Below, piece by piece: positions 1,122-5,004 of a stretch of DNA of 5,004 nucleotides. Both the position numbers and the translations under genes were made by a program. Position 1 is the stretch's first letter. The number at the start of each line of letters is the position of its first letter. Source of the DNA: Anaerolineae bacterium (lineage in GTDB: Bacteria > Chloroflexota > Anaerolineae > UBA1429); NCBI GenBank assembly GCA_007118555.1, contig SKRJ01000225.1:1-5004 (forward strand), read 5' to 3'. The notes under the pieces were generated by a model. It had not been told where the DNA came from. It searched no databases and was given only the letters and a program-made list of their open reading frames with translations.

Positions 1122-2723
1122 ATGCCCAAGCCCGACGTTCTACTAGGAGAAGACAGTCGTACTGGTATGCTCCGAGGATTCGAGTCGGTGGGGCGCCTGA
1201 TGGCGCTCACCCTGGGACCCATTGGGGGCAATATCGCCAACGAGAGGGATGGCACTCGCGAGATCGAGATCCTGCGCGACGCCGCCACAGCCGCCCGGCG
1301 TGTGATCGAGATTCCCAATGTGCGTGAGAATCCGGGCGCTATGCTCATGCGCCATATCGTGTGGAATGTTCGGGAGCAGGTGGGCGATGGCAGTGCCACG
1401 GCGGCGGTGATTGCCCACGCCCTGGCCAAAGAGATGCAGCGTGTCATTGCGGCCGGCGCCAACGCCATGATCGTCAAGCGGGGCGTCGAGCGGGGATTGC
1501 GGGCGGCCGTCAAGGCACTCGACGAGATGGCCATGCCCTTGGAGGGCGAGGAGAACATCGCGGCGGTGGCAACCGCGGCGGTGGGCGACGCCGAGATCGG
1601 CAAGGTGCTGGGAGAGATCTTTGACGTCCTCGGGCCCCACGCCAGCGTCGTGATCGTGCCCTATGTGGCCACCGATCACGATCGGGTGTATCGGGAGGGG
1701 GCGCGATTCCGGGGGGGCTATGTCTCCTCCTATCTCGTAAATGATGAAACCCGGCGCATGGCGGTTCTGGAGGATGTCCATATCGCTGTGGCCGACATGA
1801 ACTTTGCAACCGCCGAGAGCGCCGCCAACCTCCTCGAGCAGGTGGTGGCCGCCGGCGGCAAGAACCTCTTTGTGATCTGCAAGCTCTGCTCTGACAAGGC
1901 CATCGGCGTATTCGCTGCCAACAACGATGGCAAAAAGATCTTTTCCTCGGCGGCCACCCTCAAGCCGATCGGCGATGCGCGGCGCGGCACCTTTGAGAAC
2001 ATCGCCATTCTGACCGGAGCCCAACCCCTGAACGACAAGATGGGTATGGCCCCGGAAGAGATCACGATCCACGATCTGGGCCACGCCGACAGGGTGGTGG
2101 TGGAAAAAGAGGCCTTTACCATCGTGGGAGGCAAGGGCGATCCTGGCGCCCGACAAAAGCGGATTCAGGAGCTGCGCGAACGGGTGCGCAAAGCGCACGA
2201 CCCCGAGGAGCGTGATACGGCCCGAGAGCTGCTCACCAGCTTTTCCGAGGGGGTCGCCGAGCTGCGTATCGGCGCTCTCACCGGTCAGGAGCGCAAAGAG
2301 TTGACCGAGATCGCCGAGCAGGCCATCAAGACGGTGACGGCGGGCATGGAGAGCGGCGTTGTGCCGGGCGGCGGGGCAGCCTATCTGGCCTGCATCCCCG
2401 CTGTGAATGCGCTGGAGGCAACCGGGGACGAGGCCTTTGGCATCCAGATCGTGGCCCGCGTGCTCGAGGAGCCGCTCCGTCGTATAGCAGCCAACTCGGA
2501 TGTGCATCCGCCCCTGGCCCTCGCCGAGGCGCAGGCGCGAGGCGTGGGCTATGGCCTGGATGCGCGTACGGGAGAAATCGTGAACATGCTGGAGGAGGGC
2601 ATCGTAGATCCCGCCATTGTGGCGCGGCGGGCCCTCGAACATGGCGTCAGTGGCGCCCTCATGCTGCTTACCACAGACGCCCTGGTCATCCATCGCAAAC
2701 CCAAGGAGAATGTAGAGCCATGA
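1122..2723 (+). CDS. Divergent group I chaperonin (GroEL/Hsp60-like) lacking the catalytic aspartate
   Basis: A 533-aa cytoplasmic protein that aligns with GroEL (about 548 aa) over its whole length. The ATG at 1122 is chosen because it has a good ribosome binding site, lies downstream of the promoter, and gives MPKPDVLLGEDSRTGMLRG, matching the GroEL N-terminus (FGEDARxAMLRG). Domains by homology: equatorial ~1-135 and 411-533, intermediate ~136-190 and 375-410, apical ~191-374. Retained: TLGP at 30-33, Asp53 (GroEL Asp52), GDG at 88-90 (Asp87), VPGGG at 414-418, Asp496 (Asp495). Altered: Gln400 sits where GroEL has the ATP-hydrolysis residue Asp398; DGTTT reads DGSAT (89-93); Lys51 is Arg52. 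In the apical groove Tyr200, Tyr204 and Leu239-equivalent hydrophobicity persist, but positions equivalent to Val263/Val264 are Ala265/Ala266. The C-terminus ends KPKENVEP with no GGM repeat. It is intact, with no frameshift. No groES is adjacent. Known: GroEL Asp398 mutants bind but barely hydrolyse ATP. Inferred: a specialised, non-housekeeping chaperonin paralogue; whether it forms rings is unknown. Confidence 0.93.
   Translation: MPKPDVLLGEDSRTGMLRGFESVGRLMALTLGPIGGNIANERDGTREIEILRDAATAARRVIEIPNVRENPGAMLMRHIVWNVREQVGDGSATAAVIAHALAKEMQRVIAAGANAMIVKRGVERGLRAAVKALDEMAMPLEGEENIAAVATAAVGDAEIGKVLGEIFDVLGPHASVVIVPYVATDHDRVYREGARFRGGYVSSYLVNDETRRMAVLEDVHIAVADMNFATAESAANLLEQVVAAGGKNLFVICKLCSDKAIGVFAANNDGKKIFSSAATLKPIGDARRGTFENIAILTGAQPLNDKMGMAPEEITIHDLGHADRVVVEKEAFTIVGGKGDPGARQKRIQELRERVRKAHDPEERDTARELLTSFSEGVAELRIGALTGQERKELTEIAEQAIKTVTAGMESGVVPGGGAAYLACIPAVNALEATGDEAFGIQIVARVLEEPLRRIAANSDVHPPLALAEAQARGVGYGLDARTGEIVNMLEEGIVDPAIVARRALEHGVSGALMLLTTDALVIHRKPKENVEP
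2703..2708 (+). promoter_or_regulatory. Ribosome binding site for the propeller gene, inside the chaperonin 3' end
   Basis: AAGGAG lies 11 nt before the ATG at 2720 and is read as part of the chaperonin's last codons. Together with the ATGA stop/start overlap it indicates translational coupling. Confidence 0.7.
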
Positions 2724-4624
2724 GTGTTACGGAACAAGCGTCTTCGGGCGATCGCTGGGAGTGCATAGGGCCCGTCGCCGGCGGGGGTACGGTGTTTAGC
2801 GTTGCGATCTCCTCTCGCGGGCAAGAGACCCTCTATTGGGCCGCCACGGGTTGCGGCGTGTTCATGTCGGACGACGAGGGCGAGACCTGGCAGCAGCGAA
2901 TCAATGGATTGACGACGCCGCTGGTCAGCGCTATGGCCGCGGCCCCCAATGGGGCGCTTTTTGCAGGCTCGCTGAACGCCGAGCTGTTTCGCTCCATGGA
3001 TTTTGGCAAGACGTGGCAACGGGGCACGCAGGGCTGGGATGCCGAAGGCACCGTTACCGCCATGGCAGTCTCGCCCAAGTACATGGAGGACGGTGTGGCC
3101 TATGCCGCTCTCGATGGCGGCGCGCTCATGGTCACGCGCAACTCGGGCCGGCATTGGGAAGACAGCAGCTTTGGCATGAACAGCATGACGGTCATCGCTG
3201 TGGCGGTGACGCCCAGTTGGGAGCAGTACGAGACCATGTTCGGCGCCACCGATCAGGGCGTATACATCTCGCGCAATGGCGGCCGCGCCTGGCGCGCCAC
3301 GAACCTGATGCTGGACGAGCAGGTGGGCGTGATCATCGTGAGTCCCGACTATGCCAACGACGGGACCGTGTATGCGGGCACCGAGTCGGGCGCACTGTAC
3401 ATCTCGACGGATCAGGGGCGCAACTGGGAGCAGCTCCATGAAGAGATCGCCGACGGGCCGCTGAACTGCATGTGGGTGGCCCCCGATTTCGCCGAGAGCG
3501 GCCGTCTGGTGGCCGGCATCGGCAACGGCATCTATATCTCCTCGGACCGCGGCACCACCTGGAGCCTGGCGTACGAGATGCCTGGCGCGGTGCTCTCTCT
3601 GGCCGGAGACGGCGCCGTGGTGCTGGCCGGCATCCATGATGCGGGCGTCTACCGCTCGCTGGATAGTGGCGATACCTGGCAATCGGCTACGGGCAATCTG
3701 GCGGCCCGCGGCTTTGCGCGCCTGATGAATAGCGATGGCCTGCTCTGCACCATGGGGCCGCAGGAGGGCGTGTACTTTTCCGAGGACGCCGGAGATACCT
3801 GGCGCGCGATGGAGGGTCTGGAGATGTACCTGCCCCTGGCCGCCCTGTCGATGCCGGGGGATGGCCAGGTCTTCCTTTCCAGCCAGGAGTTGGGCATCCT
3901 GCGCGGGACGGCCTATGGCACGAACTGGCGCCTGCGCTATGAGAAGGAAGGCGTCTCTACCCTGTTGGTGCTGCCCAAAGAGAACCTGGGCTGGGCCGGC
4001 ACGGTGGAGGGCGAGTTGCTCACCAGCCGTGATGGCGGCATGAGCTGGCAGCCCGTGGAGGACCCGCCCACAGAGGGGCAGGAGGTACTCACCATCGTGG
4101 CCTCGCCGAACTTTGCCGAGGACCGTACTCTTTACATGGGCACGGTGATCGAGGGCACGCGCTCCCAGCCGACGCGGGTGGCGCTATGGCGCTCGCGCAA
4201 CAGGGGCCGCACCTGGCACCAACTGACCACGCAGCAGACCGACTCGCGCTGGGTGCACATCACCATGCCGGTGGGCGTCACTGACGGGGTGGCCGATCAG
4301 GCCGTCCTGGCCACGGGGCCCTATTGCCTGCGGCCGCTGCGCCGCGCCAAGGACGTCTGGATCAGCACGGCGGTGGATCCCAACGGCGCCAACGTGCTCA
4401 GCCTGGTGGCCATCGGCGAGATCGACAATGGCGCCCTGCTGTATGCGGCCACGGGCAATGGCGTCTACCGCTCCACCGATGGCGGACGCACGTGGCACGC
4501 CTTTGCCGAGGGCATGGAGGGCCAGAGCGTGATCGGCCTGACGCTCCTGGGCGAGGGCGATTCTCGCGCGCTATATGCCATGGGCCTGGGCGGGCTGGTC
4601 TGGAAGCGATCGATCGCGGAATAA
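2720..4624 (+). CDS. Multi-blade Asp-box (BNR/sortilin/Ycf48-like) beta-propeller protein
   Basis: A 634-aa protein made nearly throughout of repeating blades of about 40-56 residues with the pattern S/A-P-[ND]-[FY]-x-x-D ... Y-A-G-T ... G-V-Y-x-S-x-D-x-G-x-x-W. Asp-box motifs (S-x-[DN]-x-G-x-x-W) are at residues 49-57, 91-99, 138-146, 183-191, 228-236, 273-281, 312-320, 353-361, 435-443, 491-499 and 584-592, with a degenerate one at 395-403. Such motifs form beta-hairpin turns at blade edges in sialidases, sortilin/VPS10, xyloglucanases and the photosystem II assembly factor Ycf48. No sialidase catalytic set is evident to me, so an enzyme call is not made. The N-terminus (MSVTEQASSGDRWE) has no signal peptide and there is no membrane helix, so it is predicted to be cytoplasmic, unlike many BNR proteins. 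It overlaps the chaperonin stop by ATGA and shares its promoter, so it is likely the chaperonin's client or partner. The repeat count suggests two propellers of six to seven blades or one large one. Confidence 0.9.
   Translation: MSVTEQASSGDRWECIGPVAGGGTVFSVAISSRGQETLYWAATGCGVFMSDDEGETWQQRINGLTTPLVSAMAAAPNGALFAGSLNAELFRSMDFGKTWQRGTQGWDAEGTVTAMAVSPKYMEDGVAYAALDGGALMVTRNSGRHWEDSSFGMNSMTVIAVAVTPSWEQYETMFGATDQGVYISRNGGRAWRATNLMLDEQVGVIIVSPDYANDGTVYAGTESGALYISTDQGRNWEQLHEEIADGPLNCMWVAPDFAESGRLVAGIGNGIYISSDRGTTWSLAYEMPGAVLSLAGDGAVVLAGIHDAGVYRSLDSGDTWQSATGNLAARGFARLMNSDGLLCTMGPQEGVYFSEDAGDTWRAMEGLEMYLPLAALSMPGDGQVFLSSQELGILRGTAYGTNWRLRYEKEGVSTLLVLPKENLGWAGTVEGELLTSRDGGMSWQPVEDPPTEGQEVLTIVASPNFAEDRTLYMGTVIEGTRSQPTRVALWRSRNRGRTWHQLTTQQTDSRWVHITMPVGVTDGVADQAVLATGPYCLRPLRRAKDVWISTAVDPNGANVLSLVAIGEIDNGALLYAATGNGVYRSTDGGRTWHAFAEGMEGQSVIGLTLLGEGDSRALYAMGLGGLVWKRSIAE
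2864..4495 (+). repeat. Array of Asp-box blade repeats within the propeller protein
   Basis: Eleven clear and one degenerate S-x-[DN]-x-G-x-x-W boxes recur at spacings of 42, 47, 45, 45, 45, 39, 41, 42 and 40 residues for the first ten. A looser C-terminal part follows (56, then 93 residues). The last gap is long enough to hide one blade whose box has decayed, around residues 545-556. The repeats are conserved at protein level but have diverged in DNA sequence, so this is an old duplication series rather than a recent tandem expansion. Confidence 0.85.
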
Positions 4625-4674: not shown

Positions 4675-5004
4675 CTAGGCGTCAAGGTCCGGGTTGCCGG
4701 GGCCAAAGTGGCGCAGCATGACCAGCGGCTCGGTCTGGCTCAGGTTGCGTACGCGCACGCCGGCGATGGCGGCCTCTTCGCTGACAAAGAACTCGTCGTT
4801 GGTGAGCTGGCCAAAACGGATCATGGCCGGGGTCTCGATGGCCCAGGGGCCCAGCTCGCCGTGGCCCTGTACCGCGATCAGCCCATAGCAGCCTGCATCG
4901 CGTAGGGTCGCCTCGCGTCCGGGGTAGATCGTCGTCTGCTTGGCGGAAAAGCTGGGGCTGCGATAGGCGATCCACTCGTCGCGGCAGCCCAGCTCCTCGG
5001 CCTC
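4675..5004 (-). CDS. Cupin / mannose-6-phosphate isomerase-like protein, C-terminal part (5'-truncated by window edge)
   Basis: The last 109 codons and TAG stop (complement of 4675-4677) of a gene that enters from the right edge, so its start is not visible. The frame reads EAEELGCRDEWIAYRS at the edge and ends MLRHFGPGNPDLDA. The alternation of short hydrophobic strands with Gly turns (YGLIAVQGHGELG, then AIETPAMIRFGQ, then DEFFVSEEAA) is what the second beta-barrel of cupin-type sugar-phosphate isomerases looks like. The segment TNDEFFVSEEAA...EPLVMLRHFGPGNPD resembles proteins I recall annotated as mannose-6-phosphate isomerase-like or cupin proteins. No metal-binding His/Glu set can be confirmed in this fragment. 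It converges on the propeller gene, so it is not part of that operon. I am confident it is coding and only moderately confident of the family. Confidence 0.8.
   Translation of the reverse strand, partial: EAEELGCRDEWIAYRSPSFSAKQTTIYPGREATLRDAGCYGLIAVQGHGELGPWAIETPAMIRFGQLTNDEFFVSEEAAIAGVRVRNLSQTEPLVMLRHFGPGNPDLDA

What the first reader, a model, noticed from the sequence alone, without database searches (positions are those of the whole stretch)
2319..2321. Chaperonin with Gln in place of the catalytic ATPase aspartate (GroEL Asp398)
From GVAELRIGAL through VPGGG the protein aligns without gaps to GroEL GVAVIKVGAA...VAGGG. At the position of Asp398 (V-E-D-A-L in GroEL) it reads A-E-Q-A-I, giving Gln400, codon CAG. 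In E. coli GroEL, replacing Asp398 leaves ATP binding but nearly abolishes hydrolysis. Asp53 and Asp89, the other key nucleotide-site acids, are kept. The reading frame is intact and well conserved elsewhere, so this looks like a functional change rather than decay. It suggests a slow or locked ring, or a scaffold role.
Basis: partly seen in the sequence, partly recalled or inferred. Interest (0 to 1): 0.72.

Follow-up and report, generated by a model that had tools for sequence, protein, structure and literature searches.

The report
Chaperonin that lost its catalytic aspartate
A second GroEL-type folding machine in Chloroflexota bacteria has lost the aspartate that lets GroEL split ATP quickly, has no groES lid gene beside it, and is encoded directly before a predicted propeller-shaped protein that it likely helps to fold in what would be a slow cycle.

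Summary
In detail: codon 400 (2319-2321, CAG) of an intact 533-aa GroEL-type ORF is Gln at GroEL Asp398, in predicted helix M; Asp53, Asp89 and Asp496 are kept. In the close group none of 110 readable homologues has Asp there (Gln 78, Glu 20, His 7, Met 2, Val 2, Ile 1), while 28 of 28 housekeeping Chloroflexota GroELs do. dN/dS 0.095 argues against decay. The protein belongs to a well-supported clade of second chaperonins without a neighbouring groES. Simplest tree reading: Asp lost once, the site then drifting; early branches keep Asp.

The next gene (2720-4624, ATGA overlap) encodes a predicted cytosolic double seven-bladed propeller. The pair holds in 13 of 13 family genomes that carry this chaperonin; in fetched loci a propeller follows 56 of 87 divergent chaperonins (51 of 82 without loci fetched by propeller) and 0 of 25 housekeeping ones.

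I propose a slow-cycling chaperonin dedicated to this propeller, as CCT serves WD40 propellers. ATPase, ring form and client are untested. Some propeller-linked relatives keep Asp, so pairing does not require its loss.

The parts
1122..2723 (+). divergent group I chaperonin, 533 aa
   Evidence: ORF; Pfam Cpn60_TCP1 151.9 bits against cut-off 34.3; full-length GroEL-like model
2319..2321 (+). codon 400, CAG = Gln, at the position of GroEL Asp398
   Evidence: conservation
1278..1280 (+). codon 53, Asp (GroEL Asp52), kept
1386..1388 (+). codon 89, Asp (GroEL Asp87), kept
1395..1397 (+). codon 92, Ala at GroEL Thr90
   Evidence: Ala in 146 of 167 divergent rows, Thr in 28 of 28 housekeeping rows
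2607..2609 (+). codon 496, Asp (GroEL Asp495), kept
2720..2723 (+). ATGA: start codon of the propeller gene overlaps the stop codon of the chaperonin gene
   Evidence: the same 4-base overlap in 13 of 13 family genomes that carry the chaperonin
2720..4624 (+). partner gene: BNR/Asp-box beta-propeller protein, 634 aa, predicted cytosolic, predicted two seven-bladed propellers

Best explanation
The window encodes a second, divergent GroEL-type chaperonin that lacks the catalytic Asp398 and is likely a slow-cycling chaperonin dedicated to folding the predicted double beta-propeller encoded by the next, overlapping gene. Shown: Gln stands at the Asp398 position while the nucleotide-binding acids remain; no Asp occurs at this site in the close group; no groES lies beside the gene; the propeller gene follows with a 4-base overlap throughout the family genomes that have the chaperonin. 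Predicted: ATP would still bind and move the apical domains, but hydrolysis would be slow, as in the GroEL D398A mutant (about 2% of wild type), so that a bound client would dwell long in the ring. Inferred: the client is the co-translated propeller, whose ends must meet to close each ring of blades, a job that the eukaryotic chaperonin CCT does for WD40 propellers. Untested: ring form, use of the housekeeping GroES, and whether release needs any hydrolysis.
For: Gln400 in helix M, gap-free alignment. 0 of 110 readable close homologues with Asp against 28 of 28 housekeeping rows. dN/dS 0.095 for the chaperonin and 0.065 for the propeller. Divergent clade split from housekeeping at 100/100. No groES beside divergent copies, against 26 of 27 housekeeping copies with it (L062 judged by eye). 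Propeller 4-base overlap in 13 of 13 family genomes; propeller behind 56 of 87 divergent loci, 51 of 82 without those fetched by propeller, 0 of 25 housekeeping. In the class search 33 of 39 propeller places lie beside a divergent chaperonin. E. coli D398A about 2% ATPase and slow client release (PMC3813556 passages). CCT folds propellers and is described as retaining clients on its low-ATP side (PMC6599039 passages).
Against: No biochemistry. Four propeller-linked divergent chaperonins keep Asp (L144, L153, L154, L158), so the partner does not require slow hydrolysis. 31 of 87 divergent loci have no propeller behind them, and 5 of 39 propeller places have no chaperonin in the fetched stretch, so neither needs the other everywhere. 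Glu at the site (33 of 167) may still work as a base. Asp53 is kept and could support some hydrolysis. Adjacency can mean shared regulation only.
Confidence: 0.45

Rival explanations
1. An ordinary, general second chaperonin that kept useful ATPase: Asp53 with the new residue or a shifted water does the chemistry, and the propeller is only an operon neighbour.
For: Asp52, Asp87 and Asp495 positions held in 160, 164 and 164 of 167 divergent rows; Glu at 398 in 33 rows. Divergent chaperonins also occur without a propeller (31 of 87).
Against: The site drifts to residues that cannot act as a base (Arg, Lys, Asn, Ala, Val, Met). No groES beside it. The overlap with the propeller gene is kept in 13 of 13 family genomes.
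Confidence: 0.2
2. The propeller is not the client but a lid or cofactor: a seven-bladed disc caps or clamps the seven-membered ring in place of GroES.
For: No groES beside it; GroES/client groove positions altered (Leu234 Gln in 67 and Ala in 31, Val264 Ala in 98 of 167; roles recalled); predicted seven-bladed rings.
Against: The propeller is one chain, not a heptamer with mobile loops; its size varies from about 282 to 721 aa next to divergent chaperonins; 31 of 87 divergent loci lack it; housekeeping GroES is available in the family.
Confidence: 0.1
3. A subunit for mixed rings with housekeeping GroEL, in which ATPase-poor subunits act as a brake.
For: Housekeeping GroEL is present in the same genome and the fold is the same.
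Against: About 33% identity to housekeeping copies and many altered contact residues, for instance Arg197 to Gly in 124 of 167 rows, make co-assembly less likely; not tested.
Confidence: 0.1
4. A ring that no longer cycles at all and serves as a holdase or scaffold (near the first reader's locked-ring or scaffold idea).
For: Six divergent rows have lost a second acid as well (Asp52 in L110, P0120, L164; Asp87 in L162, L166, L168).
Against: In the window's own protein the binding acids are kept; the apical groove stays partly hydrophobic (Leu237 in 143 of 167).
Confidence: 0.1

Closest known systems
E. coli GroEL and its D398A mutant
   Different: 31 to 32% identity, natural Gln, no groES beside it, altered Thr90, Ile150, Arg197; has a propeller partner
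Eukaryotic CCT/TRiC with WD40 propeller clients
   Same: What it may work like: a chaperonin that serves propellers, with low-ATP subunits (PMC6599039 passages)
   Different: CCT is group II, eight-membered and hetero-oligomeric; this protein is group I by sequence and fold
Chlamydial GroEL2 and GroEL3
   Same: Diverged, groES-less GroEL paralogues in bacteria (PMC5904260 and PMC1892554 passages)
   Different: NCBIfam models for them score far below cut-off (112.8 and 93.9 against 600 bits); state of their Asp398 not checked
Phage EL chaperonin
   Same: Distant GroEL relative that does not use E. coli GroES
   Different: Keeps the catalytic Asp (Asp412) and is an active ATPase (PMC7185714 passages)

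Membership tests
Group I chaperonin (Cpn60) superfamily | Cpn60_TCP1 profile over its cut-off and full-length GroEL-like fold, closer to group I than to group II | tested here: met
   PF00118 151.9 against 34.3 bits; best solved relatives are group I, E 2e-84, against 8.7e-27 for the best group II row listed; fold
GroEL proper (NCBIfam equivalog TIGR02348) | score over the equivalog cut-off | tested here: not met
   332.0 against 582.1 bits
GroEL proper | catalytic Asp398 | tested here: not met
   Gln400
GroEL proper | groES gene beside it | tested here: not met
   none upstream in the window; in fetched divergent loci only L062 was flagged, through its housekeeping copy
GroEL proper | ATPase and GroES-dependent folding | not testable with these tools
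   needs purified protein
Divergent Chloroflexota chaperonin clade (described here) | falls on the divergent side of the split from housekeeping GroELs | tested here: met
   100/100 support in two trees
Divergent Chloroflexota chaperonin clade (described here) | C-terminal proline | tested here: met
   ends in ...NVEP; Pro last in 160 of 167 divergent rows, 0 of 28 housekeeping rows
F510_1955 BNR family (propeller partner) | NF045728 score over cut-off | tested here: met
   208.2 against 175 bits; its glycosylhydrolase label was not tested

The most novel reading that the evidence does not exclude
Bacteria evolved their own propeller-folding chaperonin: a groES-less second GroEL that gave up its catalytic aspartate in one event, let the site drift, and became a slow, ATP-held ring for a double seven-bladed propeller made by translational coupling, as client or even as lid; a group I counterpart of CCT and its WD40 clients.
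Probability: 0.35. Interest if true: 0.82.

Novelty: new variant of a known kind. Interest (0 to 1): 0.66.

Why it matters
Asp398 is the residue that gives GroEL its fast ATP hydrolysis. A natural clade that lost it while staying under purifying selection, with relatives that kept it, gives a ready experiment on what chaperonins need hydrolysis for. A conserved propeller partner would also make it a bacterial chaperonin with one dedicated client, and a test of why propellers so often need chaperonins.

Tried and rejected
Decay or sequencing error: rejected by the intact frame, dN/dS 0.095 and the same codon in L004. Misalignment with another Asp in the site: rejected; the stretch is gap-free and the residue lies in predicted helix M. 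Gln as a fixed, special residue: rejected; the site varies. 'All divergent chaperonins lack Asp': this held in the class search apart from L106 and P0119 but was corrected by the phylum search, which found early branches with Asp, some with a propeller. Chaperonin-propeller fusion: the long homologues printed (P0022, P0114, P0118) only have N-terminal extensions. Heat-shock CIRCE operator: 0 matches in the window with up to 3 mismatches (motif recalled). Promoter and terminator scans were at chance level. Link between Asp loss and propeller presence: no power on the tree (6 independent pairs on starred branches, Asp state differing in at most 1). Structure listings for the propeller mix GH74 enzymes, WD40 and designed propellers; no function was read from them and GH74 catalytic residues were not tested. 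Blades were not counted in the model itself. Paper searches found nothing on this family in the held open-licence library (listings only).

Full report
What is there. The window is a whole contig (G000:C450) of a draft genome of 2.6 Mb, 78% complete. The nearest named relative is an Anaerolineae MAG with a 91%-identical protein (L004). The window holds the end of an ABC-2 permease (1-825), the chaperonin (1122-2723), a BNR propeller protein (2720-4624) and part of a gene without Pfam or NCBIfam match on the other strand (4675-5004).

Conservation. Among the 120 best homologues listed the site reads Q78 E23 H9 V3 M2 D2 I1 R1 gap1. In the close group of 111 rows it reads Q78 E20 H7 M2 V2 I1 gap1, with no Asp. 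In 167 divergent rows, non-redundant at 90%, Asp remains in 14; Gln 76, Glu 33, Arg 15, His 12, Lys 7, Asn 3, Val 3, Ala 1, Met 1, and two rows not printed. All 28 housekeeping rows have Asp398, Thr90 and Arg197; divergent rows have Ala at Thr90 in 146 and Gly at Arg197 in 124. Asp52, Asp87 and Asp495 hold in 160, 164 and 164 of 167 (gaps counted as not holding). Six divergent rows have lost a second acid: Asp52 in L110, P0120 and L164, Asp87 in L162, L166 and L168. The genome's housekeeping copy L002 keeps Asp398; L003 begins after the site.

History. A 69-row tree with column 398 left out separates 53 divergent from 16 housekeeping sequences at 100/100. After the phylum search a 66-row tree keeps that split and shows early branches with Asp (L167/L169, L161/L163, L153/L154/L158, L156/L160/L165) and then a 44-row clade (98/97) without it except for L106, a long branch, and L144: at least three changes between Asp and non-Asp. 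The simplest reading is one loss, followed by drift among at least seven residue types in the tree, with two retentions or regains; several inner forks are open. Between the window and L004, dN/dS is 0.095 for the chaperonin and 0.065 for the propeller.

The partner. In the order, represented by 15 genomes of one family, 13 carry this chaperonin at 53 to 100% identity. G007 shows only a housekeeping-like match; G014 has a divergent chaperonin of another type with Arg at the site (L034). In 13 of 13 the propeller gene starts in a 4-base overlap with the chaperonin stop; two propellers are cut by contig ends (L057, L059), and for L059 (G006) the rest lies at the edge of another contig. In 298 genomes of the class, 39 propeller places in 37 genomes score at E 1e-35 or better. 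I place 33 beside a divergent chaperonin (one beside a fragment at a contig edge, L145; one split over contigs, G006), 5 without one in the fetched stretch (G103, G161, G040:C500, G028, G104) and 1 undecided (G076, contig edge). Of 89 divergent loci fetched, 56 have a propeller behind the chaperonin, 31 do not and 2 have too little sequence; of 28 housekeeping loci 0 of 25 do and 3 are too short. Without the five loci that a propeller search had brought in it is 51 of 82. At 90% non-redundancy it is 42 of 64 against 0 of 21 (Fisher 4e-8, ignoring descent and still with those five); at 70% the control shrinks to one row and tests nothing. By residue, propeller present: R21 E13 Q11 D4 N3 H2 A1 K1; absent: D12 H8 K6 R5. 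Pairing therefore occurs with and without Asp, and the tree needs at least seven gains or losses of it.

No groES. Of 27 housekeeping copies (E. coli included) with at least 400 bases upstream, 26 have groES just upstream. Of 67 such divergent loci the script flagged only L062, where it had measured the housekeeping copy in the same stretch; there the divergent gene points the other way and groES lies on the opposite strand. Positions that bind client and GroES (roles recalled) are less hydrophobic: Leu234 is Gln in 67 and Ala in 31, Val264 is Ala in 98 of 167; Leu237 stays Leu in 143.

How it likely works. In E. coli, D398A leaves about 2% ATPase, slows one apical movement more than 60-fold and slows client release (PMC3813556 passages). 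By analogy the window's ring would bind ATP and move but hydrolyse slowly. CCT folds propellers, whose ends must meet to close the last blade, and a passage in PMC6599039 describes clients as retained on the CCT side with low ATP use. A slow ring made together with a double propeller fits that picture. ATPase, ring form and client are all untested; Asp-bearing propeller-linked relatives show that slow hydrolysis is not a precondition for the pairing.

Other settings. Where no propeller follows, the neighbours differ: sugar ABC permeases and dioxygenase-like genes (L083, L088, L112), a transaldolase-like gene (L094, L096), read by eye from ORFs printed and not tested with profiles. This hints at a family of specialist chaperonins in different operons.

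Literature. Passages were seen of PMC3813556, PMC5904260, PMC7185714, PMC1892554, PMC6599039 and PMC11166852; no paper was read whole. PMC11166852 reports another chaperonin, from a cold-loving bacterium, with strongly reduced ATPase that client binding activates. None of the searches listed a paper on this family, in a library of open-licence PMC papers only.

Noticed in passing
L080, L083, L084, L088-L090, L116, L117: Caldilineaceae-type genomes carry a His398 chaperonin without a propeller; in L083 and L088 it follows sugar ABC permease-like genes and faces a dioxygenase-like gene, while some of the same genomes also have an Arg398 type with a short propeller (about 300 aa).
   Followed up: partly
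L094, L096-L100: Lys398 chaperonins without a propeller; a transaldolase-like gene lies downstream in L094, L096, L098 and L099 (read by eye).
   Followed up: no
L162, L166, L168; L110; P0120; L164: A second ATP-site acid is gone as well: Asp87 to Asn in three Glu398 proteins; Asp52 to Lys, Asn and Ser in the other three.
   Followed up: partly
L140, L142, L143, L150, L151: Related propellers without a chaperonin in the fetched stretch.
   Followed up: partly
L062 (G002:C12): The divergent pair lies about 2 kb from the housekeeping groES-groEL operon, in the opposite orientation.
   Followed up: no
G000: L002, L003: The window's genome has two partial housekeeping GroEL copies with different C-termini.
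   Followed up: no
4675-5004 (-): C-terminal part of a gene without Pfam or NCBIfam match, 425 aa in L004, also beside the pair in L005.
   Followed up: no
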